A stretch of DNA of 18,433 nucleotides, from positions 1 to 18,433 of the forward strand of contig JADFSZ010000012.1 in assembly GCA_022560555.1 (NCBI GenBank). Reading direction: 5' to 3'. A program made the translations under genes and the position numbers. The notes under the pieces were generated by a model, which did no database searches, had not been told where the DNA came from, and was given only the letters and a program-made list of their open reading frames with translations. This DNA is from JADFSZ01 sp022560555 [NCBI: PVC group bacterium] (GTDB lineage Bacteria; GCA-001730085; JADFSZ01). Of this stretch, positions 260 to 11,308 are shown piece by piece. Position 1 is the stretch's first letter. Each line of letters opens with the position of its first letter.

Positions 260-410
260 TAGTTCGGAGCCAGGAGTTCGGAGAATTCATTTACCCTTAC
301 TTAGTCATAACATCTAAAAACCACACGATTTGGATATTGAGTGTTTTGAATTGGAAACTTATGAGGCTTTGAAAAAGGGTTTTTTGCTCCGAACTCTTAA
401 CTCCGAACTA
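260..410. repeat. Inverted repeat with 24-nt arms, each arm a tandem of AGTTCGGAG
   Basis: The left arm (260-283) reads TAGTTCGGAG, four bases, then GAGTTCGGAG. The right arm (387-410) is its reverse complement except for the four central bases (CCAG in one, TTAA in the other). Each arm therefore carries the core AGTTCGGAG twice at a 14-base period. The 103 bases between the arms (284-386) are AT-rich and contain no ORF I can support. Both arms end on TA. The right arm supplies the TAG stop of the upstream tpx-hemB frame. It could be a small non-autonomous (MITE-like) element or a cruciform/bidirectional terminator; there is no clear U-tract directly after a stem, so I favour a repeat element without being able to prove mobility. 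Confidence 0.7.
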
Positions 411-2000
411 ATGGCGTAGCCATTCGGCGGCATCTTTGGCATGGTAGGTGAGGATAAAGTTAGCTCCGGCACGCTTGAAGCTGACAAGGATTTCTAACAC
501 AGCTTCTTTCTCATTTAACCATCCGTTTTGAGCTGCGGCTTTCACCATGGCATATTCTCCCGATACGTTATACACAGCCACGGGAACTTTTGACATTTCG
601 CATATTGTTTTTAAGACATCCAAATAAGACAGACCGGGTTTGACCATAACCATGTCAGCCCCTTCTTCAATATCCAACTCAATTTCCCTCACGGCTTCAC
701 GGGCATTAGCCGGGTCCATCTGATATGTTTTTTTGTCGCCTTTTTTGGGCGTGCTCCCTAGGGCATCCCGAAATGGACCATAGAATGAAGAAGCGTATTT
801 GGCCGAATACGCCAATATCCCGACATTCGTGAATCCTTGTTCGTCTAAAGCGTCTCGAATATACCCCACGCGTCCGTCCATCATGTCCGACGGGGCCACA
901 ATATCGGCACCGGCTTCAGCTTGTGTCAATGTCATTTTCGCCAAAATCTCAAGAGTCTCATCATTCACGATTCGGCCAACATTATCCACAATCCCGTCAT
1001 GACCATCACTGCTGTAGGGATCCATAGCCACATCCGTGATAAGAACGAGATCGGGAATATTTTGTTTGATGAGGCGAATGGTTTTTTGATAAAGTCCTTG
1101 AGAATTGTACGATTCGCGTGCGGTCTTATCCTTTAATGCTTCCGGGATAAGCCCAAAGAGCACCACCCCTGGAATTCCGGATTGGTAGAGTTCCTCGCAT
1201 TCTTTGACAATGAGATCCATGCTCAGGCGGTATATTCCCGGCAGTGAAGGTATTGCCACTCGAAGATTTTTTCCATCACAGACAAAAAGAGGCATAACGA
1301 GATCTTCGACCGAAAGGGAAGACTCACGGACAAGTTTGCGAATGCCCTCCGATTGGCGAAGTCTCCGGGGACGCTTACGAATATTTGCCAAAGATGATTT
1401 GACATCGTATGTGTGAAAATCCACGTCCGTCTTTTCTTCGGATTTTATCAAAGGATCTCTATACATTATTTTACGATGTGATTTTTTAAGATTTTCTAAC
1501 ACATCTTCGTAATTCGGCTCCGTTGTGATCTCCGGAACGATTTGAATGTAACGAATCACGCCTTCGGTGTCCACGATGAAAACGGCCCGCGTGAGAAGAT
1601 TGGCTTCTTTCCAATTTACACCCCAAGCATTTCCGAATTCACGGGAGTTATAATCGGATAAAGACTGAATGTTCTCGGCCTTGTTAGCACCGCACCAGCG
1701 GGCCTGGGCGAAAGGCAGATCACGGCTCACAAGCAAAACAACCGTGTTGTTACCGAGCTTGGCCGCTTCTGTGTTAAATCTTTTGGCCTCCAGATCACAC
1801 ACAGGCGTATCCAAAGAAGGGACAGCTACGATGATACATGTTTTTCCCTTAAATGAAGAAAGGTTTACGGCTTCAAGACCGTTCGAAACAAGTGTGGTGT
1901 CGGGTGCCTGATCACCAACTTTAATTTCATTTCCCGTGATTGTAACGGGTGTTCCTTTAAATGTGACAATATTTTTACGTTCTACAGCGGTTGTACTCAT
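408..2000 (-). CDS. tpx-hemB: Fused thiol peroxidase - porphobilinogen synthase (Tpx-HemB)
   Basis: One uninterrupted 530-codon frame. Residues 1 to about 174 are a complete atypical 2-Cys peroxiredoxin Tpx: peroxidatic C68 in SLDTPVC, resolving C103 in FAQARWCGA, and the family's EITTEPNYE ending. Residues from about 179 to 530 are a complete delta-aminolevulinate dehydratase, which condenses two 5-aminolevulinate into porphobilinogen for heme. Its Schiff-base lysines are K401 (AYSAKYASSFYGPF) and K454 (VKPGLSYLD). The metal loop reads D-V-A-M-D-P-Y-S-S-D-G-H-D-G, so the three zinc cysteines are replaced by A/D/D, as in Mg-dependent forms. The start at 2000 has GGAGG nine bases upstream; the longer reading back to 2096 runs into the aquaporin gene and lacks such a site. 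The alternative hemB start, M179 (1464-1466), has no ribosome binding site and no stop lies in frame before it, so a real fusion is the simplest reading. A lost stop codon through sequencing or assembly error is the main alternative. Confidence 0.88.
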   Translation of the reverse strand: MSTTAVERKNIVTFKGTPVTITGNEIKVGDQAPDTTLVSNGLEAVNLSSFKGKTCIIVAVPSLDTPVCDLEAKRFNTEAAKLGNNTVVLLVSRDLPFAQARWCGANKAENIQSLSDYNSREFGNAWGVNWKEANLLTRAVFIVDTEGVIRYIQIVPEITTEPNYEDVLENLKKSHRKIMYRDPLIKSEEKTDVDFHTYDVKSSLANIRKRPRRLRQSEGIRKLVRESSLSVEDLVMPLFVCDGKNLRVAIPSLPGIYRLSMDLIVKECEELYQSGIPGVVLFGLIPEALKDKTARESYNSQGLYQKTIRLIKQNIPDLVLITDVAMDPYSSDGHDGIVDNVGRIVNDETLEILAKMTLTQAEAGADIVAPSDMMDGRVGYIRDALDEQGFTNVGILAYSAKYASSFYGPFRDALGSTPKKGDKKTYQMDPANAREAVREIELDIEEGADMVMVKPGLSYLDVLKTICEMSKVPVAVYNVSGEYAMVKAAAQNGWLNEKEAVLEILVSFKRAGANFILTYHAKDAAEWLRH

Positions 2001-2038
2001 GATGGTTTCCTCCATGTTAATCGTTTTCAAGAAATCGA

Positions 2039-2230
2039 TTATAAATATATAGCCCCAAGAACGCCCCCAATAATAGGACCCATCCAGTAAAGCCACGCGT
2101 GATGTGATCCTCCTCCCAAGAGCGCCGGGCCCATAAAACGCGCCGGATTCATAGCCGCGATCGCACCGACACCTATAAAAACCAAAGGGAACGTTCCAAT
2201 AAATTCAGCGATACATGCTTTACGATTCAT
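2039..2230 (-). pseudogene. Internally deleted aquaporin/glycerol-facilitator (MIP family) remnant, 63 aa
   Basis: The frame begins MNRKACIAEFIGTFPLVFIG, the first transmembrane helix of MIP channels with its A-E-F-x-G-T-F motif. At about residue 27 it passes directly into MNPARFMGPALLGG and a last helix (W-x-Y-W-x-G-P-I-I-G-G-x-L-G-A), which is the second NPA box and TM6. Everything between, normally about 150 residues with TM2-TM5 and the first NPA box, is absent, yet the frame is kept to a TAA. An AAGGAT ribosome binding site lies seven bases before the ATG and a strong promoter lies upstream, so it is probably still transcribed and perhaps translated as the first gene of the tpx-hemB operon. 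It cannot form a normal six-helix channel. Either it is a decayed gene or a retained short membrane peptide; I favour decay. Confidence 0.8.
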
Positions 2231-2301: not shown

Positions 2302-2329
2302 ATTATAGCACGAGACTTTATTACGTCAA
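2302..2329 (-). promoter_or_regulatory. Strong extended -10 promoter for the aquaporin remnant / tpx-hemB operon
   Basis: Minus strand: TTGACG (2324-2329), 16 bases, then consensus TATAAT (2302-2307) preceded by TGC (extended -10). The start would be near 2295, about 65 bases before the aquaporin ATG. The rest of 2231-2372 holds no gene. A 5-bp hairpin TCCCA-GGA-TGGGA (2338-2350) follows the korB stop but lacks a U-run, so termination of the kor operon before this promoter is uncertain. Confidence 0.8.
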
Positions 2330-2372: not shown

Positions 2373-3956
2373 TCAGGAGTCAGGATGTTCTCCGGATGCG
2401 GACTCATAGATATAATTCAAAATATTTCTGATAGACAAAACACCTAAGGGGCCTTCGGAACTTTGGATGGGTAAATGGCGGAATTTCCCCATGGAAAGTT
2501 TATTGATGGCGTAGCCGATGGTGGATGATTCGTGGATTTTTTCCGGACGGATTTTGATGAGGGACAGAACCGGTGTTGTCTCACGGTCCATTTTTTGGAG
2601 CGCTACTTTCAAAAGAATATCCCGTTCCGTGACGATACCTACAAGTTTTTTTCCATCGACTACAAGCAAACACTCCACTTTGTTTTTTTTCATCGTCTGA
2701 ATGGTTTTCGCGATCGAATCATGCGGAGCAACGAAAATACCTGATGTGAGTCCGTATTTACCCAAAACGTTTTTGACGGGTTCCCGTAAAAAACGTAACA
2801 GAGGATTTTCATTTAATTTTTCGGCTTTAGCTTTTAGTTCGGATTGAATTTCTATCTCTTCGTCATAGGGGCGAAACACGGATCCATCCGCGACGGAAGC
2901 TTTTGGCTTTTGACCTTCGGCATGATAGGACCAAAAATAAGTTCCTAAAAGAAGAGATTGGAGATTTCCTTCTCCTCTTTGTTCTATGGATTTTGTGATC
3001 TGATCCCGCACCTGGTCCGCGTATGTTGGACGCTTGACACTTCTTAATACGCCCATGGGCGTGGGTTTATCGGGAAACGACATCTGCGCAAGGATGTACG
3101 CATACGATGGATCCATATTGTATTGATTATGTGTGACAATATCATCTTCTTTAACTCCTTTTTGTCCGACAGTGACCACTTCCGTGGTCATACCATTTAT
3201 ACGGATGCCTTTATTTTTATCACGACCGAACATAAGGGGTTTTCCATGCTCTAACATGAGGATTTGATCTTCTCGAACATCACGGCTTGCAACATCCTTG
3301 AAGGCGTTGTCATGAAAAATCACGCAATTTTGAAGAATTTCAACAAAAGAAGTGCCTTTGTGATTGGCGGCGGCATGAAACACCGAAAGCATATGTTTTG
3401 GATTTGTGTCAATTGTTCGAGCCACAAAAGTTGCTTCAGATGCCAGCGCGAAACAGAGGGGATTGATGGGGGTTTCGATGGATCCCATGGGACTCGTCTT
3501 GGTCTTATGCCCGGGCAACGATGTCGGGCTGTATTGGCCCTTTGTCAATCCGTAAACGCGATTGTTAAACAGCAGGATAGTTACATCCAGATTTCGTCGT
3601 AACACGTGCATGAGATGATTTCCGCCAATCGATAAACCGTCACCATCACCCGTGATGATCCATACGGACAGATCGGGATTCGCGACTTTGAGACCTGTGG
3701 CAATCGTGGGTGCGCGCCCGTGAATTGTATGAAATCCGTACGTATTCAAATAATAAGGAAATCGACTTGAACAACCGATTCCGCTTATGATCACGAAATT
3801 TTCGCGTGGGATCCCCAGCTCCGGAAATATTTTCTGGGCTGTTGACAAGATGGCGTAATCTCCGCATCCCGGACACCAGCGCACATCCACTTTGGGAACA
3901 AAATCCTTGCGGGTTAAGGGGGTAATGATGCTATCTGTTGAGCGAGCCGGTGTCAT
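2373..3956 (-). CDS. korB: 2-oxoacid:ferredoxin oxidoreductase beta subunit with C-terminal CBS pair
   Basis: 527 aa. Residues 1 to about 345 are a KorB-type thiamine-diphosphate subunit: CPGCG (C28, C31), C62 in GIGCSSR and C211 in QNCVIF are the four expected [4Fe-4S] ligands. GDGDGLSIGGNH (103-114) and NNRVYGLTKGQ (131-141) are the ThDP/Mg motifs. With KorA it would decarboxylate a 2-oxoacid, most likely 2-oxoglutarate, to the acyl-CoA and reduced ferredoxin, or run in reverse. Residues about 346-395 are a charged linker, and 400-520 form two CBS motifs (VGIVTERDIL at 439-448 and LGVLSIRNIL at 504-513). Usual KorB proteins end near 280-370 residues, so the CBS tail is an addition. The ATG at 3956 overlaps the korA stop as ATGA and has AAGGA eight bases upstream; the longer reading to 4025 lies inside korA. 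It is the last gene of the CBS-korA-korB operon. Confidence 0.9.
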   Translation of the reverse strand: MTPARSTDSIITPLTRKDFVPKVDVRWCPGCGDYAILSTAQKIFPELGIPRENFVIISGIGCSSRFPYYLNTYGFHTIHGRAPTIATGLKVANPDLSVWIITGDGDGLSIGGNHLMHVLRRNLDVTILLFNNRVYGLTKGQYSPTSLPGHKTKTSPMGSIETPINPLCFALASEATFVARTIDTNPKHMLSVFHAAANHKGTSFVEILQNCVIFHDNAFKDVASRDVREDQILMLEHGKPLMFGRDKNKGIRINGMTTEVVTVGQKGVKEDDIVTHNQYNMDPSYAYILAQMSFPDKPTPMGVLRSVKRPTYADQVRDQITKSIEQRGEGNLQSLLLGTYFWSYHAEGQKPKASVADGSVFRPYDEEIEIQSELKAKAEKLNENPLLRFLREPVKNVLGKYGLTSGIFVAPHDSIAKTIQTMKKNKVECLLVVDGKKLVGIVTERDILLKVALQKMDRETTPVLSLIKIRPEKIHESSTIGYAINKLSMGKFRHLPIQSSEGPLGVLSIRNILNYIYESASGEHPDS

Positions 3957-5794
3957 AGATATGTCCTTATCTTTGTTTCGATTTCCTGGATGGCAAAGGG
4001 TCGTCCCTGAACTTTTGAAAAACATTCGGCGTCTATAAGGTATTTTGCGCGAATCAGCATGGTTAATTGTCCCAGATTTATTTCAGGGATAAGCACTTTT
4101 TCAAAATTTTTGATAATTTGATGCAAATCAAGAGGAAGGGGATTGAGATAACGCAAGTGGAGGCTTGAAACCGCGTGACCTTGTTTTTGCAGGCGATTCA
4201 CGGCTGTGGTAATCGCTCCGTACGTTCCTCCCCAACCGATCACGAGAATTTTTCCATGATCGGATCCGTTGATTTCTGTCGGTTTAAAGTCTCTCGCGAT
4301 ACCTGCGACTTTGCCCGCGCGCAGGCAAACCATTTTCTCGTGATTTTCCGGATCATAACTAACTCCACCAGTTTCATTTTTTTCGAGGCCTCCAATGCGA
4401 TGTTCTTGACCGGGAGTACCGGGAATCGCCAAACGGCGCGCCAGTGTGTGTGGATCCCGCTGATAGGGAACATATTCGACATTTTTGTCCGCGTAGGTGA
4501 TGTGACTTGACGGTAAATCATCAATGGCCGGGATCTTCCACGGTTCTGTTCCATTCGCAATGTATCCATCTGAAAGCATCACCACGGGAGTATTATACTT
4601 AAAAGCGATGCTCGCGCAGTCAATAAATGTCTCGAAACAATCCGAAGGAGACCTCGCGGCTAAAATAGGAACGGGGGATTCTCCGTTACGTCCGAACAAA
4701 ACCTGAAGAAGATCCGCTTGTTCCGTTTTTGTCGGAAGACCGGTGCTGGGACCGCCGCGCTGGACATTGATGACTATCAGAGGAAGCTCCGTGATGACCG
4801 CTAGACCCATCATCTCGGCCTTAAGACACATACCCGGACCGCTTGTCGCCGTTATACCTAAATTTCCGGCAAAACTGGCGCCTAAGGCCATCCCGATGGC
4901 CGCAATTTCATCTTCCGCTTGGAGGGTTTTGATTCCAAAATGTTTGTTGCTTGATAAATAGGCCAAAATGTCGGTTGCCGGTGTGATAGGGTAGCTCGCG
5001 TAAACAACTTCTATATTCGATGTTTTCGCGAATGTAATAATCCCAAAAGATAAAGCTTCATTCCCGGAAATTTTCCGATACACTCCCGGTTCCATCGTTG
5101 TGACAGGACTGACATGGAAATGAGTCGGCATCAATTCGGAGGTTTCGGCAAAATAATAGCCCGCCTTGAGGGCCCGGCTGTTGGCATCAATCACGTCGGT
5201 CTTTTTTGCGAATTTTCTTTTGATCCATCCAAGAGTGTAATCCATGTCACGGTTATAAAGCCAGTAGGTTACTCCGAGCGCAAAAAAGTTTTTGCACAAT
5301 GTCTTTTCCGAAGTTTTAAGGGGATTGTCTTTGAGGACCTCAAGGGTTAAGTCAGTGATTTTGATTTTGATAATCTTAAATTTTTGCGAGAAAGCTTTAT
5401 CTTCAAGAGGATCTGATGTGTAACCGGCTTTTTTAAGATTTTGAGGCGTAAATGTGTTTGTGTTAGCGATCACAATGCCCCCGTTCTTTAACTCGCTAAT
5501 GTTAACTTTGAAGGCCGCCGGATTCATGGCGACAAGAACATCCGGCGTATCTCCGGGAGTGAGAATCTGGTTACTTCCGAAACAGAGCTGAAATCCGGAA
5601 ACACCCGGTAAAGTGCCCTGAGGCGCGCGAATTTCCGCTGGAAAATCCGGAAAAGTGCTGATATCATTTCCGGCGATCGCGCTTGAGTTGGTGAATTGTG
5701 TGCCTGTAAGCTGCATGCCGTCGCCCGAGTCTCCGGCAAAACGAATCACAACCGATTCAAGTTCAGTGACAGATTTTTTCACGTTAGATTCCAT
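3953..5794 (-). CDS. korA: 2-oxoacid:ferredoxin oxidoreductase alpha subunit (gamma-alpha fusion)
   Basis: 613 aa. The N-terminal part (about 14-215) is the gamma domain (FAGDSGDGMQLTG at 19-31, FPAEIRAP at 51-58), and about 240-430 is the POR-N/alpha domain. The YPITPATD motif (268-275) supplies the threonine that contacts thiamine/substrate in this family, with AEDEIAAIGMALGASFAG (293-310), TSGPG (317-321) and GGPSTGLPTKTEQADL (347-362). The C-terminal part (about 510-605) is the transketolase-C-like domain. The gamma-alpha order and two-subunit layout without a separate ferredoxin-like delta gene match the KorAB type known from mycobacteria and Hydrogenobacter. Substrate choice (2-oxoglutarate rather than pyruvate or others) is inferred from that similarity. 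The chosen start (ATG 5792-5794) lies four bases after the CBS-gene stop, with only a weak GGGG ribosome site; a start at 5836 would overlap the CBS gene and has no better site. Confidence 0.9.
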   Translation of the reverse strand: MESNVKKSVTELESVVIRFAGDSGDGMQLTGTQFTNSSAIAGNDISTFPDFPAEIRAPQGTLPGVSGFQLCFGSNQILTPGDTPDVLVAMNPAAFKVNISELKNGGIVIANTNTFTPQNLKKAGYTSDPLEDKAFSQKFKIIKIKITDLTLEVLKDNPLKTSEKTLCKNFFALGVTYWLYNRDMDYTLGWIKRKFAKKTDVIDANSRALKAGYYFAETSELMPTHFHVSPVTTMEPGVYRKISGNEALSFGIITFAKTSNIEVVYASYPITPATDILAYLSSNKHFGIKTLQAEDEIAAIGMALGASFAGNLGITATSGPGMCLKAEMMGLAVITELPLIVINVQRGGPSTGLPTKTEQADLLQVLFGRNGESPVPILAARSPSDCFETFIDCASIAFKYNTPVVMLSDGYIANGTEPWKIPAIDDLPSSHITYADKNVEYVPYQRDPHTLARRLAIPGTPGQEHRIGGLEKNETGGVSYDPENHEKMVCLRAGKVAGIARDFKPTEINGSDHGKILVIGWGGTYGAITTAVNRLQKQGHAVSSLHLRYLNPLPLDLHQIIKNFEKVLIPEINLGQLTMLIRAKYLIDAECFSKVQGRPFAIQEIETKIRTYL

Positions 5795-5798
5795 ATGC

Positions 5799-6278
5799 TT
5801 ATGCCCCGAACGTTTCTGTGGAAATTCGTTCTCCATACGGAGGAAGATTCAGCACTTCCCCCGGTAAATTTTCGGCAATAAATGTGATCAAATTCCGAAC
5901 AGACAAAAGTCCTAAAATGTTTTTTGGATTATGGCATATGGGAATGTGTCTGATGGATGTTTTTCCTAAAAAAATAACAACATCGGAAATAAGCGTATCG
6001 GGCGAAAGAGACAAAACCTTACGGCTCATAAATTTACCAATGGGTGTGGATTTTGCAAGATCGGTCGCGATGAACTTTTCCATTATGTCTCTTCCGGTTA
6101 CAATCCCCGACAGGGCTTTGTCTTTGTTGATGACAAGGACACAACCTGTTTTTTTGGTCTGCATGTCGCGAATAGTGGCCTCGATGGACGTATCTTCCGT
6201 GACAATAATAGGGGTTTGAAGCGGAATGTGTCCGACACTAACGGACCAAAAATCCGTTTTTTGTTTTGATTCAGTCAC
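5799..6278 (-). CDS. Stand-alone CBS-pair protein, first gene of the kor operon
   Basis: 159 aa with two CBS motifs: about 20-75 (ending SGIVTGRDIM) and about 85-145 (ending LGLLSVRNLITFIA), then a short tail containing EVLNLPPYG. CBS pairs bind adenosine nucleotides or SAM and act as regulatory modules. It has no enzyme or DNA-binding domain, so it probably works by contacting another protein, most plausibly KorAB. Its second CBS repeat resembles the end of the KorB tail (LGVLSIRNILNYIYESASGE against LGLLSVRNLITFIAENLPGE), which suggests a common origin for the two. The start is GTG (6276-6278) with GAGGG seven bases upstream. It is four bases from korA and clearly co-transcribed. Confidence 0.85.
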   Translation of the reverse strand: MTESKQKTDFWSVSVGHIPLQTPIIVTEDTSIEATIRDMQTKKTGCVLVINKDKALSGIVTGRDIMEKFIATDLAKSTPIGKFMSRKVLSLSPDTLISDVVIFLGKTSIRHIPICHNPKNILGLLSVRNLITFIAENLPGEVLNLPPYGERISTETFGA

Positions 6279-6429: not shown

Positions 6430-6458
6430 TTGTCAAGGCAGGTCTGTGTTAGGATAAA
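6430..6458 (+). promoter_or_regulatory. Promoter candidate for the MenI-like thioesterase
   Basis: TTGTCA (6430-6435), 17 bases, GATAAA (6453-6458). Five of six and four of six matches to consensus. The transcript would begin near 6465, so it excludes an upstream TTG start at 6430 and supports the ATG at 6508. Confidence 0.5.
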
Positions 6459-6507
6459 CGTGTTAGTGGCTGACAACGCTTTGCCGACTATGCCCCTGAG
6501 GAGAAAA

Positions 6508-6918
6508 ATGTTCAAAAAAACACATATTGTTCGGATGAATGATACCGATGCTGCCGGAATCTTGTTTTTCGCAAATCAGTTTTCTATAGTCCATGAGGTA
6601 TACGAAGATTTTATGGAGAGTATAGGGTGCGGATTTGCTCATTTGCTTGATAAAATGAATTTTTTTGTGCCGATTGTTCGTGCTGAGGCTGATTACAAAA
6701 GGTCTGTCAGTGTGGGGGAAAGACTCGAGATCAAACTGTTTGTTGAGAAAGTCGGAACGACGTCTTTTACCATGTCCTATACTTTAACCGGAAAAAATCG
6801 ACGGCGTATCGGGACGGTAAGAACCGTTCATGTGTCCGTCGGTCGTTCTTCAAAAAAGAAGATACCGTTACCCGCGCATCTCAAGAAGATCTTGAAAAAG
6901 CACGTGAGAGTTTTATAG
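6508..6918 (+). CDS. menI: Hot-dog acyl-CoA thioesterase, probable DHNA-CoA hydrolase (MenI-type)
   Basis: 136 aa of the 4-hydroxybenzoyl-CoA thioesterase fold. The active-site segment D12-T-D14-A-A-G-I-L-F-F-A-N-Q-F-S-I-V-H-E-V-Y-E carries the family's catalytic aspartate (D14) followed by the AAG turn. The D-T-D-A-A-G-x-x-x-F-A-N pattern with H-E-x-Y-E is the one seen in cyanobacterial DHNA-CoA thioesterases such as Slr0204. With menB, menA, menC and menE beside it, the natural role is release of 1,4-dihydroxy-2-naphthoate from the MenB product before MenA. A general acyl-CoA thioesterase cannot be ruled out. The ATG follows a GAGGAG site at four bases; the longer frame from TTG at 6430 overlaps the promoter. 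Its stop overlaps the menE stop by six bases on the opposite strand. Confidence 0.75.
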   Translation: MFKKTHIVRMNDTDAAGILFFANQFSIVHEVYEDFMESIGCGFAHLLDKMNFFVPIVRAEADYKRSVSVGERLEIKLFVEKVGTTSFTMSYTLTGKNRRRIGTVRTVHVSVGRSSKKKIPLPAHLKKILKKHVRVL

Positions 6919-8382
6919 CTGCGTCAAGGGTGAAGGGGATGACGTGAGGCGGCTTTTGGCTGTCAGAGCAAGCTTTTGACGGTCCGGTTTGCCCTCCGGG
7001 TTCAACGCGTTTTCGGGCCATGAAAGAAAGTGATCCGGTATTTTATAGCCGGGAAGAAACCGGCGGAGTTCTTGATCAAGGGATTTTTCTTCCGAAGAAA
7101 CATTATCCCGCATCTTAACAAAAGCGACCGGCCGCCATCCAAATTCGGCATTCTCTACCGGAACAACAATGGCCTGGCGCACATCCGGGATGTTTGTCAG
7201 GGCCGCTTCTATTTCTTCGGGTTGAATGTTTTCACCTCCGGAAATAAACATATTGTCCGCGCGTCCCGTGATCACGAGGGTGCCTTTGTCGGTCATATAT
7301 CCCGTGTCACCCGTGTGAAACCACCCTTCGGCATCGCCCGGCCGATGAATATTTTCTTCCTCGATATAACCTTTAAACAATGTCTTTCCACGGACAAAAA
7401 TTTCTCCCGAACCGGAAATTTTTAATTCTCTATGGGGCAGAAGGACGCCGGCCGTCAAAAGTTTCTCAACGGAATCATGGGCTCGTGTTGTTGAAACTTG
7501 ACTGGCCATCTCTGTCAATCCGTACGTGACATGAACGGGGAGGCCTTTTGCATACGCTTCATTTAGCAGCTCTTGCGGGATCGCGCTCCCTCCGATAAGG
7601 ATGGCTTTAATCGAGGAAAGTGTTTTCCGGCTCTCATTTATCTTGAGTAATCTGAAAAGTTGAGTGGATACTAATGATACATGTGTGATCTTGAACTTTT
7701 TAATATTTTCAAGAACATCATCAGGCTTTTTAGGGATCACACATGCGGCTCCTGCCAGCATCGCGCGGTACAGGATGGCTTGGCCCCCTACATGGTACAG
7801 GGGAAGCGTGATGAGCCATCGATCAAGAGATCCGAGCGGAATGTTCATATTGCTTCCAAGCGCACTGTAGTAATGATTCCCAAAGGATAAGACGACGGGT
7901 TTAGGGATTCCCATGGAGCCGGATGTGAACATGATGGACGCGTCTTGGTCGAGAGATAGATTTTCATTGTCCGTCGGAGCTCCCTGTATGACATTGAGAT
8001 CTACGAGGTCTTCAATAAAAATGAGTTTTGCTTGCGAGGAGAAGTCAATGGGAAGTGTTTTTTTAGTTGTGATAAAAAATGGTGTTTTAACTTTTTTGAG
8101 AAGATGATTGATGGCCGTGGACGGAAGCCGTGTCGACAAAGTGCAGGCGACGGCGCCTAAATGCAAAAGAGCCATAAGGACGATGGGGTACTCCAGACGA
8201 TTTTCAATCAAACAGCTCACACGGTCGCAGGGGCGAATACCGGCATTGATGAGATGGGTTTTGACGACACTGACACATGTCAAATATTTTGGGTATGTGA
8301 ACGTGAAATCTTCATTTATCAACGCGGATTGACCGGGAAAATCACGGCTGGCTGTAATAAGCGGGCTTTCTATATCAGACAT
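6913..8382 (-). CDS. menE: o-Succinylbenzoate-CoA ligase
   Basis: 489 aa adenylate-forming (ANL) enzyme. The ATP P-loop TSGSMGIPK is at 153-161, GLTEMA (the A5-type motif) at 288-293, GWFHTGDTG at 353-361, the hinge region ITGRADNMFISGGENIQPEE at 371-390, and the C-terminal lysine in EGKPDR is K465. It would activate o-succinylbenzoate with ATP and CoA for ring closure by MenB. The motifs alone define only an acyl-CoA ligase; the assignment as MenE rests on its place after menC and menA and on its MenE-like length. The ATG at 8382 has AGGAAA eight bases upstream and overlaps the menC stop by eight bases. The 3' end is convergent and overlapping with the thioesterase gene, and no terminator is visible between them. 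Confidence 0.87.
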   Translation of the reverse strand: MSDIESPLITASRDFPGQSALINEDFTFTYPKYLTCVSVVKTHLINAGIRPCDRVSCLIENRLEYPIVLMALLHLGAVACTLSTRLPSTAINHLLKKVKTPFFITTKKTLPIDFSSQAKLIFIEDLVDLNVIQGAPTDNENLSLDQDASIMFTSGSMGIPKPVVLSFGNHYYSALGSNMNIPLGSLDRWLITLPLYHVGGQAILYRAMLAGAACVIPKKPDDVLENIKKFKITHVSLVSTQLFRLLKINESRKTLSSIKAILIGGSAIPQELLNEAYAKGLPVHVTYGLTEMASQVSTTRAHDSVEKLLTAGVLLPHRELKISGSGEIFVRGKTLFKGYIEEENIHRPGDAEGWFHTGDTGYMTDKGTLVITGRADNMFISGGENIQPEEIEAALTNIPDVRQAIVVPVENAEFGWRPVAFVKMRDNVSSEEKSLDQELRRFLPGYKIPDHFLSWPENALNPEGKPDRQKLALTAKSRLTSSPSPLTQL

Positions 8383-9463
8383 GGTGAATTTCCTGACTGC
8401 CTTTTGGGCTTAACCCGGCAAGAGTATTCATATAATAGTCAATGTGGATCGTTGGACCTTTTTGTTTTCGTAGTATTATGTCGCTTCCAAAAACATCCTC
8501 TCTGAAAAATGAACACGTGTCAAGTCCGGCGCCGGGTTCGGCCCAAGACAGAGAGGCCGCATAGTGCGCGCACATGAGCCATCCAAGGGGCGTTTCAAAG
8601 GTGGAGCTGATGATGACATTCTTTTGATGCTGCCGGGCATGATGGATCCAAATGTCCGTGGCTTTTAAGCCTCCGAGAAGCGTGGGTTTTAGGACAAAAG
8701 TTTTAACACCATGAAGATCAATAAAATCATCGCACCCGGGGCCGATCAAGGTTTCGTCAAGAGCGGACAGAATCCCGGTATGTTCATAAAACTCCGGGAT
8801 GTTTCCGGGATCTTCAACAGGTTCTTCGATATAGTCGATGCGAAATCTCGAAATCGATTTTCCGATCTTTAGGGCTTTTGTAAGCGGCCACTCGCGGTTA
8901 GCATCCAAGCGTAGGATGGCTTTTGGATCGATGATGTTCCGAATTTTTTCGAGAGTGGATATTAGTTCTTCTTCTTTAAAATTTTGGGTTTTTAATTTGT
9001 AGGCACGGTATCCTTCCTGGTGGCATAAACGAGCCTTTTTACATATGTCATCACTTGTTCCCGTAAGGAGTGCTTGAGTATAAACCCGGGAATGAAAATT
9101 ACTGTTTAAGATACCCGCCGGAGGTGTTTTGGATCGATGGGACAAAAGATTGAGATAGGCCGCTTCAAATCCGAATTGCACCGATGGAAAAGATGGAATC
9201 GGTGTCCATGCGCTCCAAGTATCAGGGAGGGGATGTGAGAGGATTTCTTTTTTGATACGGGTGGCGTCCAAAAGACAATCCTTTAGGGATTCTTGGCTGA
9301 ATCCGGGTAAAGGCGCAATTTCTCCACATCCTATAAAACCGTCCTTATCCGACATTTTAATAATGATTCCCTCTCGATGGGAGTGAGGGGTGCCTTTGAA
9401 CATCACCGATGAGCGAAAAGGATGTTTGTATTGATAGAGGCTGATATTATGAATAGTGATCAT
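8375..9463 (-). CDS. menC: o-Succinylbenzoate synthase
   Basis: 362 aa member of the enolase superfamily. Catalytic features are in the right order: K-L-K (K156 and K158) on the second strand, metal ligands D187 (LRLDANREW), E213/E214 (YIEEPVEDP) and D236 (SALDETL), and K259 (FVLKPTLLGG) on the opposite face. MenC dehydrates SHCHC to o-succinylbenzoate, the substrate of MenE encoded directly downstream. Dipeptide epimerases share this scaffold, but the men context decides. The ATG at 9461-9463 lies inside the end of menA (17-base overlap), and I see no clear ribosome site, so translation is probably coupled to menA. The N-terminal capping domain is complete, so the protein is full length. Confidence 0.87.
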   Translation of the reverse strand: MITIHNISLYQYKHPFRSSVMFKGTPHSHREGIIIKMSDKDGFIGCGEIAPLPGFSQESLKDCLLDATRIKKEILSHPLPDTWSAWTPIPSFPSVQFGFEAAYLNLLSHRSKTPPAGILNSNFHSRVYTQALLTGTSDDICKKARLCHQEGYRAYKLKTQNFKEEELISTLEKIRNIIDPKAILRLDANREWPLTKALKIGKSISRFRIDYIEEPVEDPGNIPEFYEHTGILSALDETLIGPGCDDFIDLHGVKTFVLKPTLLGGLKATDIWIHHARQHQKNVIISSTFETPLGWLMCAHYAASLSWAEPGAGLDTCSFFREDVFGSDIILRKQKGPTIHIDYYMNTLAGLSPKGSQEIHHV

Positions 9464-10364
9464 ATATTGTTATCCAGATAAAAAATGCCGAGTACGATAA
9501 ACTGACGCATAAAAGAAAGACCCCCGTTTGAGCGAGAAGCCGGTTGAGCTCTTTTTCTTGTCGATAAAACCAAATTTTCTTAATATTTGGTATTGAAAAT
9601 ACCAGACAAATAAAAAACAAAATCAAACTCATCTTAGGATGAAGGGGGAATGTGGTGCCCAGGACAAGCCCCAACGCGATCAGGAATGAAAGCGTGTATT
9701 CCCACTGTGTGAATATTTTTCCGAAACGCACCGCGAGGGTTCTTTTGTCTGATAGCTTATCTGTATTGACATCACGCAAATTATTCACCGCTAATATGGC
9801 AACGGACAAAAATCCGGGAATCATTCCGGCGAATATCACCCACGCGGGACAAGTGAGTGTTTGGACAAAGAAGGTTCCTCCGACGGCAATAGGTCCGAAA
9901 AATATCAAAACAAAAAAATCACCGAGACCGAGGTAGCCCAATGGTTTTGGTCCGGCCGTATACGCCAAGCCGGAAGCGATGGCAAGAACAGCAATGACAA
10001 AAATCGGCCATCCGGCGCGATATATTAAATAGATGCTGATGAGCGCGGCACATCCAAAGGCCCCCATAGCGGCCTGTTTCATGGTTTGGGCTTGAATCCA
10101 TCCTGATGCCACGGCTCTGGCAGGACCAAGGCGGTCATTTCGGTCTGTTCCTTTTTGGAAATCCCAATAATCGTTGGCGTAATTTGTTCCGATTTGGATG
10201 AGCAGCGCGCCGCATAATGTTGCGAAAAAAGAGGGGGCGTGAAAGAATCCTTTATAGAACGCGAGCGCGGCTCCGATCGATACGGGGGCGATGCTGGCTG
10301 AAAGAGTTTTGGGACGTGCGGCAAGAAACCAAACTTGAATACATTTTGCGAATTTACTTTTCAC
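9447..10364 (-). CDS. menA: 1,4-Dihydroxy-2-naphthoate polyprenyltransferase
   Basis: 305 aa integral membrane protein of the UbiA family with eight to nine hydrophobic segments. The first aspartate motif is N64-D-Y-W-D68-F-Q-K-G-T-D-x-x-D, followed by GPARAVASG (80-88); the second is N195-L-R-D198-x-x-x-D202-x-x-x-D206-K-R-T-L-A-V-R-F-G. The N-D-Y-x-D and N-N-L-R-D signatures are those of MenA rather than UbiA or heme O synthase. It prenylates and decarboxylates DHNA at the inner membrane to give demethylmenaquinone. The start is a GTG (10362-10364) with no strong ribosome site; no other start fits before the conserved W-x-x-A-A-R-P-K-T-L segment. It lies 34 bases after menB. Confidence 0.9.
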   Translation of the reverse strand: MKSKFAKCIQVWFLAARPKTLSASIAPVSIGAALAFYKGFFHAPSFFATLCGALLIQIGTNYANDYWDFQKGTDRNDRLGPARAVASGWIQAQTMKQAAMGAFGCAALISIYLIYRAGWPIFVIAVLAIASGLAYTAGPKPLGYLGLGDFFVLIFFGPIAVGGTFFVQTLTCPAWVIFAGMIPGFLSVAILAVNNLRDVNTDKLSDKRTLAVRFGKIFTQWEYTLSFLIALGLVLGTTFPLHPKMSLILFFICLVFSIPNIKKIWFYRQEKELNRLLAQTGVFLLCVSLSYSAFFIWITIYDHYS

Positions 10365-10398
10365 TTATTTTTTTTGACTGGGAACTGGAAACTTTCTT

Positions 10399-11262
10399 TT
10401 AAGGTCTTTTGGGAAATTTTGAAAAGTCCGGTTTCCGCTTTTCGTTAAAAGCATTACGGCCTTCTTGGCCTTCTTCTGACATGTAATAAAGCATGGTCGT
10501 GTTTCCCGCGAGCTCCTGCAAGCCGGCTTGTCCGTCACAATCAGCGTTGAGGGCTGCTTTTAAACAGCGGATGGCCATGGGAGAATGGGCGAGCATCTCC
10601 CGGCACCACTTGATCGTTTCTGCTTCCAGATTTTCATAGGGTACAACCGTATTTATTAAACCCATATCCAGCGCTTGTTGGGCATTATACTGACGGCAGA
10701 GAAACCAAATTTCACGCGCCTTTTTTTGTCCGACAATGCGTGCCATATAACTCGCGCCGTATCCGCCGTCAAATGATCCCACTTTGGGGCCGGTCTGTCC
10801 AAAGATAGCATTGTCGGCCGCGATCGAGATGTCACACATGAGATGAAGAACATGCCCTCCGCCGATCGCGTATCCCGCGATCATGGCCACAATCGGCTTG
10901 GGACACGTACGGATTTGTCTTTGGAAATCAAGAATGTTGAGTCGATGGACACCGTTTTCGTCTTTATATCCCGCGTTTCCGCGAATCTTTTGATCCCCGC
11001 CTGAACAAAAGGCTTCTTTCCCCTGACCTGTCAGAATAATTACACCGATGGACGTGTCTTGTCTAGCATCTTCGAGGGCGTCAGACATCTCGGTGACTGT
11101 TTTCGGACGGAACGCATTTCGGACACGCGGACGATTGATCGTGATTTTGGCGATTCCGCTTGATTTATGGTAGAGAATATCCGTGTAAGTCTTTGCTTCT
11201 TGCCAGGAAACAATGGAAGTTATAGGGGCATTTTGTTTTTTTGAAAGAAGATTTTGATTCAT
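10399..11262 (-). CDS. menB: 1,4-Dihydroxy-2-naphthoyl-CoA synthase
   Basis: 287 aa crotonase-fold enzyme, first gene of the menB-A-C-E operon. Diagnostic stretches are [16 protein letters not shown] (41-56), [12 protein letters not shown] (84-95) and [18 protein letters not shown] (155-172), with S163 and D165 at the catalytic positions. Position 158 is glycine (Q-T-G), as in E. coli-type enzymes that need bicarbonate as an external catalytic base; the other class has Q-T-D. So a bicarbonate dependence is predicted. It converts o-succinylbenzoyl-CoA to DHNA-CoA. I chose the ATG at 11262 rather than 11301: the upstream one has no ribosome site and lies within a good extended -10 element, while 11262 has AAGG at 11 bases and gives the usual MenB length. 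A simple ACTGGRA heptad run fills part of the gap to menA. Confidence 0.92.
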
Positions 11263-11299
11263 GGTGATGGATACCTTAATTACAAATTCGCGAGGACAC

Positions 11300-11308
11300 A
11301 TCTTAGCA
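11300..11308 (-). promoter_or_regulatory. Extended -10 promoter candidate for menB-A-C-E
   Basis: Minus strand TGC followed by TAAGAT (11300-11305). No convincing -35 is present. A start near 11293 leaves a leader of about 30 bases to the ATG at 11262. It lies back to back with the plus-strand promoter at 11352-11380. Confidence 0.45.

What the first reader, a model, noticed from the sequence alone, without database searches (positions are those of the whole stretch)
408..2000. Complete thiol peroxidase fused in frame to a complete Mg-type porphobilinogen synthase
Both halves keep all catalytic residues (Tpx C68/C103; HemB K401/K454 and the aspartate metal loop) and normal lengths, with only a few linker residues. 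There is no stop between them and no ribosome site before M179, so the two enzymes would be made as one chain. I know of no described Tpx-HemB fusion. A link is plausible: HemB substrate ALA and heme intermediates generate peroxide, and a tethered peroxidase could protect the enzyme. Alternatively a tpx stop codon was lost recently.
Basis: partly seen in the sequence, partly recalled or inferred. Interest (0 to 1): 0.78.

Follow-up and report, generated by a model that had tools for sequence, protein, structure and literature searches.

The report
Peroxide-removing enzyme fused to heme enzyme
In one draft genome of a poorly known bacterial phylum, a peroxide-destroying enzyme and a heme-building enzyme are encoded as one uninterrupted protein; both halves look intact, but without reads or close relatives neither its reality nor its use is proven.

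Summary
On the minus strand, 2000 to 408 is one open frame of 530 codons: an intact thiol peroxidase (Tpx, residues 11-172) and an intact Asp-type (non-zinc) porphobilinogen synthase (HemB, 207-529), joined by about 35 residues rather than "a few". Both pass NCBI's equivalog cut-offs and keep their catalytic residues. A GGAGG precedes the tpx ATG; no internal start codon near the junction has more than a 3-base match. It is the only Tpx or HemB match in the 91.5%-complete genome. No fusion appeared in 120 other genomes searched, 54 of which gave a HemB-side match, nor in 103 other HemB loci. Tpx relatives end at aligned residues 174-177 (11 of 12); here the frame reads through, while both other frames stop there. 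One substitution or a slip in an A6 run, in evolution or in the assembly, would join the genes. The one other phylum genome held has no Tpx, so the junction cannot be checked in relatives. Best reading: a real, lineage-specific read-through fusion of two ordinary enzymes, probably with little functional coupling.

The parts
408..2000 (-). tpx-hemB fused gene, 530 aa, ATG 2000 to TAG 408
   Evidence: one open frame; the only match at E <= 0.001 in the own genome, 1-530 in one place, no stop inside
1482..2000 (-). thiol peroxidase (Tpx) part, residues 1-173; peroxidatic C68, resolving C103, R138 (roles recalled)
   Evidence: Redoxin; NF001808 above cut-off; alignment with 12 frames from other genomes; best solved relative 2jsy, E 1.2e-52
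1377..1481 (-). linker, residues 174-208, no Pfam or NCBIfam domain; contains M179, TTG184, GTG193 and TTG204, none with more than a 3-base ribosome-site match; an A6 run lies at its 5' edge
408..1376 (-). porphobilinogen synthase (HemB/ALAD) part, residues 209-530 plus stop; Lys 401 and 454, Asp loop from 323
   Evidence: (best solved relative 1w1z, E 2e-119)
2009..2013 (-). Shine-Dalgarno GGAGG before the tpx start
2302..2329 (-). promoter-like site TTGACG-16-TATAAT with TG before the second hexamer, upstream of the aquaporin remnant and tpx
   Evidence: 11 of 12 positions; a consensus match only: 6 sites found in the region, shuffles mean 4.1, sd 2.4
2039..2230 (-). 63-aa aquaporin remnant (start and end pieces joined in frame, middle missing), between the promoter-like site and tpx
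   Evidence: ORF; PF00230 positions 184-221, E 8.1e-9, the only MIP match in the genome; the N-terminal piece was recognised by reading
260..410 (.). 151-bp element with about 24-bp terminal inverted repeats; its edge overlaps the hemB stop codon
   Evidence: repeat-end pattern (up to 2 mismatches) matched 23 times on 14 contigs of the genome, 5 of these being shifted registers of a neighbouring match; 0 matches of the reversed control pattern

Best explanation
This is a real, lineage-specific gene fusion. An ordinary tpx gene and an ordinary hemB gene, neighbours in one transcription unit, became one reading frame when the tpx stop was lost, by substitution or by a slip in the A6 run. The cell makes one 530-residue chain from the tpx ribosome site. 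The Tpx half reduces peroxides through its Cys68/Cys103 pair, recharged by the thioredoxin system; the HemB half condenses two molecules of 5-aminolevulinate to porphobilinogen for heme. The roughly 35-residue linker extends the N-terminal arm that HemB enzymes carry, so the HemB oligomer would bear one Tpx per subunit. Shown: open frame, domains, catalytic residues, single copies in the held genome, ribosome-site pattern, presence of hemE and thioredoxin reductase. Inferred: the stop-loss origin, translation as one chain, activity of both halves, and that coupling is weak or absent.
For: One frame with no stop from 2000 to 408. Both halves pass curated equivalog cut-offs. Active-site residues are kept. 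GGAGG lies before the tpx ATG, and none of the four internal ATG/GTG/TTG codons from M179 to TTG204 has more than a 3-base match. No other Tpx or HemB match in the genome. hemE is present, 426 bits, above cut-off, followed by an ORF that reads as hemN (named by reading); thioredoxin reductase is above cut-off. Of 12 Tpx frames from other genomes, 11 end at aligned residues 174-177 and one at 179, so this frame reads through the normal end. The contig belongs with the rest of the bin: the repeat beside hemB occurs on 14 of its contigs.
Against: Only one draft genome (222 contigs) shows it. The one other genome of the phylum held has no Tpx and a 45%-identical HemB with a Cys metal loop next to hemL, so there is no independent copy. 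Both other frames stop at the junction, one as TAATG overlapping M179 just after an A6 run, so a one-base error could produce the fusion. The missing ribosome site at M179 is weak evidence: several apparent starts in the window (korA, menC, menA, tmtc, g17857) also have 3 or fewer, and 729 of 3000 random places have 4 or more. hemC was not found and hemL matches are below cut-off, so a complete heme pathway is not shown. The neighbouring aquaporin gene is a remnant, so the locus holds at least one damaged gene.
Confidence: 0.6

Rival explanations
1. Sequence or assembly error. tpx and hemB are two adjacent or overlapping genes; one wrong base at the tpx stop, or one A too many or too few in the A6 run, fuses them on paper.
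For: The natural Tpx end falls at the junction. In both other frames a stop lies there, one as TAATG overlapping M179. Fragmented draft of 222 contigs. No second copy of the fusion in 120 other genomes searched.
Against: Such errors are rare per base in a polished short-read consensus (recalled; the sequencing method here is unknown). Both halves are otherwise undamaged. M179 has no ribosome site of its own, though coupled genes often lack one.
Confidence: 0.22
2. Functional tether: the Tpx half is kept on HemB because removing or sensing peroxide next to HemB protects or regulates porphobilinogen synthesis.
For: In Leptospira interrogans sublethal H2O2 raises peroxidases and also hemA, hemC/D, hemB and hemL (PMC7567364, passages). 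Arabidopsis ALAD activity is redox-dependent through cysteines, one in its N-terminal arm (PMC10839789, passages). [quoted passage not shown]
Against: In Leptospira the heme genes were not under PerR. The three HemB cysteines here (C241, C268, C467) are Cys in only 3, 11 and 1 of 103 other loci. No recurrent fusion or adjacency was found.
Confidence: 0.12
3. The frame is fused but HemB is mainly made separately, by internal initiation at M179 or another internal start, or by cleavage of the linker.
For: The linker has no domain. Many free HemB proteins begin shortly before RPRRLR and some seem to carry longer extensions (where starts were not decided), so a start at M179 would give a normal HemB.
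Against: No ribosome site of more than 3 bases before any of the four internal start codons; no in-frame stop near M179 to allow coupling.
Confidence: 0.06

Closest known systems
Free-standing thiol peroxidase Tpx (NF001808; solved example 2jsy)
   Same: Full domain, peroxidatic and resolving Cys, conserved Arg
   Different: No stop at the usual place; the chain continues into HemB
Free-standing Asp-type porphobilinogen synthase HemB (NF006762; solved examples 1w1z, 1b4k, 1gzg)
   Same: Full domain, both Lys, Asp loop, normal C-terminus
   Different: Carries a Tpx domain on its N-terminal side; none of 103 other HemB loci shows one in the stretch held (in one of them, L018, the contig ends inside HemB)
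Fusion inside the heme pathway: hemC/D in Leptospira (listed as one ORF in PMC7567364)
   Same: Two enzymes in one reading frame, of the heme pathway
   Different: There both halves are heme enzymes; here one half is a peroxidase with no known place in the pathway
Redox-sensitive plant ALAD acted on by thioredoxin (PMC10839789, passages)
   Same: A thiol redox partner acts on an Mg-type HemB, with a cysteine of the N-terminal arm involved
   Different: Separate proteins; here the only cysteines N-terminal to HemB residue 241 are those of the Tpx domain

Membership tests
Thiol peroxidase (Tpx) | Passes the curated Tpx equivalog model | tested here: met
   NF001808, 192 bits, cut-off 123, profile 3-166 of 167
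Thiol peroxidase (Tpx) | Peroxidatic Cys in T-x-x-C, resolving Cys, conserved Arg (roles recalled) | tested here: met
   T65-C68, C103 and R138 align with 2jsy and with most of 12 relatives; the resolving Cys is absent in 3 of the 12 relatives themselves
Thiol peroxidase (Tpx) | Peroxidase activity with thioredoxin | not testable with these tools
   Thioredoxin reductase is present above cut-off; activity needs an assay
Porphobilinogen synthase (HemB) | Passes the curated equivalog model over its full length | tested here: met
   NF006762, 499.9 bits, cut-off 297, profile 4-325 of 327
Porphobilinogen synthase (HemB) | Two Schiff-base lysines (roles recalled) | tested here: met
   K401 and K454, identical in 103 of 103 other loci
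Asp-type (non-zinc) HemB | Asp instead of Cys in the metal loop (types recalled) | tested here: met
   D327 and D335; Asp in 84 and 83 of 103, Cys in 19 and 20
Mg-stimulated HemB | Allosteric Mg site and response to Mg | not testable with these tools
   E435, E439 and D443 are conserved (101, 102 and 103 of 103), but which of them binds Mg was not checked and the response needs an assay
Tpx-HemB fusion as a recurrent architecture | Same fusion in other genomes | tested here: not met
   0 of 120 other genomes searched, 54 of them with a HemB-side match; 0 of 103 other HemB loci.
Artefactual fusion | Reads or an independent genome show a stop at the junction | not testable with these tools
   No reads; one other phylum member held, without Tpx

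The most novel reading that the evidence does not exclude
A peroxide-responsive porphobilinogen synthase: the Tpx domain sits on the N-terminal arm that is proposed to decide between HemB oligomers, so the redox state or dimerisation of Tpx would switch HemB between active and inactive assemblies and tie heme synthesis directly to peroxide.
Probability: 0.08. Interest if true: 0.7.

Novelty: new variant of a known kind. Interest (0 to 1): 0.35.

Why it matters
If real, it joins two widespread enzymes in a way I did not find elsewhere, and is a natural test of whether heme synthesis gains from a peroxidase held at an early step. If it is an assembly error or a neutral stop loss, it is a useful warning that a single draft genome can suggest a new architecture by one base.

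Tried and rejected
Considered that the contig is a contaminant: judged unlikely, since the repeat beside hemB is on 14 contigs of the bin. Considered that another hemB or tpx copy makes this one dispensable: the full-length query found no other match in the genome. Considered that other genomes have tpx next to hemB as a precursor: tblastn of Tpx over 111 loci hit only the window's own locus and five loci fetched for their peroxiredoxin; in the 10 of 40 relative genomes with a HemB match and a Tpx match below 1e-20 the two are on different contigs. Long open frames upstream of HemB in L010, L021, L022, L084 and L102 hold no Tpx hit. One search lists L073, L101 and L067 with matches that begin at residues 164-185; one search finds only 3 open codons upstream of residue 207 in L073 and no Tpx hit in any of the three. 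In L018 the locus begins inside HemB, and in L021 and L066 the open frame runs to the locus end after 262 and 65 codons, so these say less. Considered a conserved cysteine switch in this HemB: its three cysteines are rarely conserved.

Led nowhere: the viral-contig scan matched 10 patterns but no relative. Of the three phylum searches around other genomes, two held only 3 genomes each and one 77. The structure model is confident for most of HemB but not for Tpx (ten-residue blocks of residues 1-210 have mean pLDDT 27-47); I could supply only HemB rows, so it says nothing against the Tpx fold, and no fold search was made with it. The linker's lower third-position GC (0.32 against 0.44 and 0.47) is too short a sample to weigh. 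The name of the phylum could not be learnt from the calls made. PMC11763182 (passages) bears on oxidation of heme intermediates, not on a fusion.

Full report
What is there. The stretch 408-2000 holds, on the minus strand, one reading frame of 530 codons from ATG 2000 to TAG 408. Pfam finds Redoxin at residues 27-168 and ALAD at 209-527. NCBIfam names them thiol peroxidase (NF001808, 192 bits, cut-off 123) and porphobilinogen synthase (NF006762, 499.9 bits, cut-off 297). The nearest solved relatives by sequence are 2jsy for Tpx (E 1.2e-52) and 1w1z for HemB (E 2e-119).

Integrity of both halves. The Tpx half keeps T65-C68, C103 and R138 in an alignment with 12 Tpx-like frames from other genomes. 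The HemB half keeps both lysines (103 of 103 other loci identical) and an Asp metal loop (D327: Asp in 84 of 103; D335: Asp in 83 of 103; the rest at these two sites are Cys). Catalytic roles are recalled from the families. HemB runs to its normal C-terminus (profile 325 of 327).

The junction. The Tpx match ends at residue 172. Of the 12 frames from other genomes, 11 end at aligned residues 174-177 and the most divergent one at 179. The first strongly conserved HemB residues begin at about 210. Both other frames have a stop at the junction, one of them as TAATG overlapping the ATG of M179, and an A6 run lies just before it. One substitution or a one-base slip would therefore separate or join the genes. 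Such an event may have happened in evolution or in the assembly; the sequence alone cannot tell.

Expression. A GGAGG Shine-Dalgarno precedes the tpx start. Before M179, TTG184, GTG193 and TTG204 the longest match to the anti-Shine-Dalgarno complement is 3 bases or none. Other starts of the window reach 4-8 (aquaporin remnant, korB, cbs, menE, g11536, hk, rr, AAA), but korA, menC, menA, tmtc and g17857 have 3 or none at the starts tested, and 729 of 3000 random places reach 4 or more, so the lack is suggestive, not decisive (two further test positions in that call, named fba and menB alt2, did not fall on start codons and are not counted). A promoter-like site (11 of 12 positions, TG before the second hexamer) lies at 2329-2302, upstream of the aquaporin remnant and tpx; the total of 6 sites in the region is within one sd of shuffles (mean 4.1, sd 2.4).

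Genome context. It is the only match for this protein in the own genome (1.66 Mb, 222 contigs, 91.5% complete). hemE is present (426 bits) and followed by an ORF that reads as hemN (named by reading only). Thioredoxin reductase is present (391.6 bits). hemC was not found, while the control found it in 11 of 14 known genomes, and the three hemL matches are below cut-off. These gaps count against a complete heme pathway; part of the genome is missing, so they are not conclusive. The only other genome of the phylum held, G001, has a HemB of 45% identity with a Cys metal loop next to hemL and no Tpx, only a weak peroxiredoxin match (30% identity, E 6.1e-5).

Search for the same fusion. Searches examined 120 other genomes (40, among them the one; then 76, 2 and 2 new ones); no match covers both domains. 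A HemB-side match was listed for 54 of the 120: 23 of 40, 28 of 77 (a different 28), and one more and two; the other 66 say little, partly because searches used strict thresholds (1e-8 with a 111-residue junction query, 1e-40, 1e-60). In one search all 29 rows begin at residue 198 or later. Of the 40 relatives, 10 have both a HemB match and a Tpx match below 1e-20, on different contigs in all 10. With 23 loci these make the 103 other HemB loci. This is not an exhaustive search.

Literature. Six searches aimed at the fusion and two on peroxide and on the HemB arm gave no title or abstract start that describes such a fusion; three of the six returned no paper at all, the others 1, 6 and 1. I saw listings only, and passages of PMC11763182, PMC7567364, PMC10839789 and PMC535902. 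The library holds open-licence papers only.

How it may work. The chain is likely made as one piece and each half acts as its free relatives do. A functional gain is conceivable: heme genes and peroxidases rise together under H2O2 in Leptospira (where the heme genes were not under PerR), Arabidopsis ALAD is redox-sensitive through cysteines that include one in its N-terminal arm, and PBGS with the allosteric Mg site is thought to change between octamer and hexamer, with the arm proposed to be decisive in the human enzyme. But the cysteines of this HemB are rarely conserved (Cys in 3, 11 and 1 of 103) and no recurrence is seen, so I rate the functional tether at 0.12 and its boldest form, a peroxide-switched HemB, at 0.08.

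Verdict. Observation confirmed; interpretation partly supported. A new combination of two well-known enzymes, probably real (0.6), possibly an artefact (0.22), with no evidence yet of a new mechanism.

Noticed in passing
2039-2230, minus: A 63-aa aquaporin remnant: start and end of an aquaporin joined in frame with the middle missing; the only MIP match in the genome.
   Followed up: partly
260-410: A 151-bp element with about 24-bp terminal inverted repeats, most printed ends having TA just outside or at the edge, as in mariner-type miniature elements (type recalled); the end pattern matches 23 times (18 sites) on 14 contigs, and here it overlaps the hemB stop codon.
   Followed up: partly
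G000 as a whole: hemC was not found and hemL only below cut-off, although hemE and a hemN-like ORF are present: missing sequence or an unusual route.
   Followed up: partly
2373-4025 and 5799-6278, minus: The 2-oxoacid:ferredoxin oxidoreductase beta subunit carries a C-terminal CBS region, and a separate two-CBS protein is encoded just upstream of the alpha subunit.
   Followed up: no
6430-6918 plus; 6913-11301 minus: menE, menC, menA and menB lie together with a thioesterase-like gene on the opposite strand (4HBT_2) that might supply the DHNA-CoA hydrolase step; its NCBIfam matches are below cut-off.
   Followed up: no
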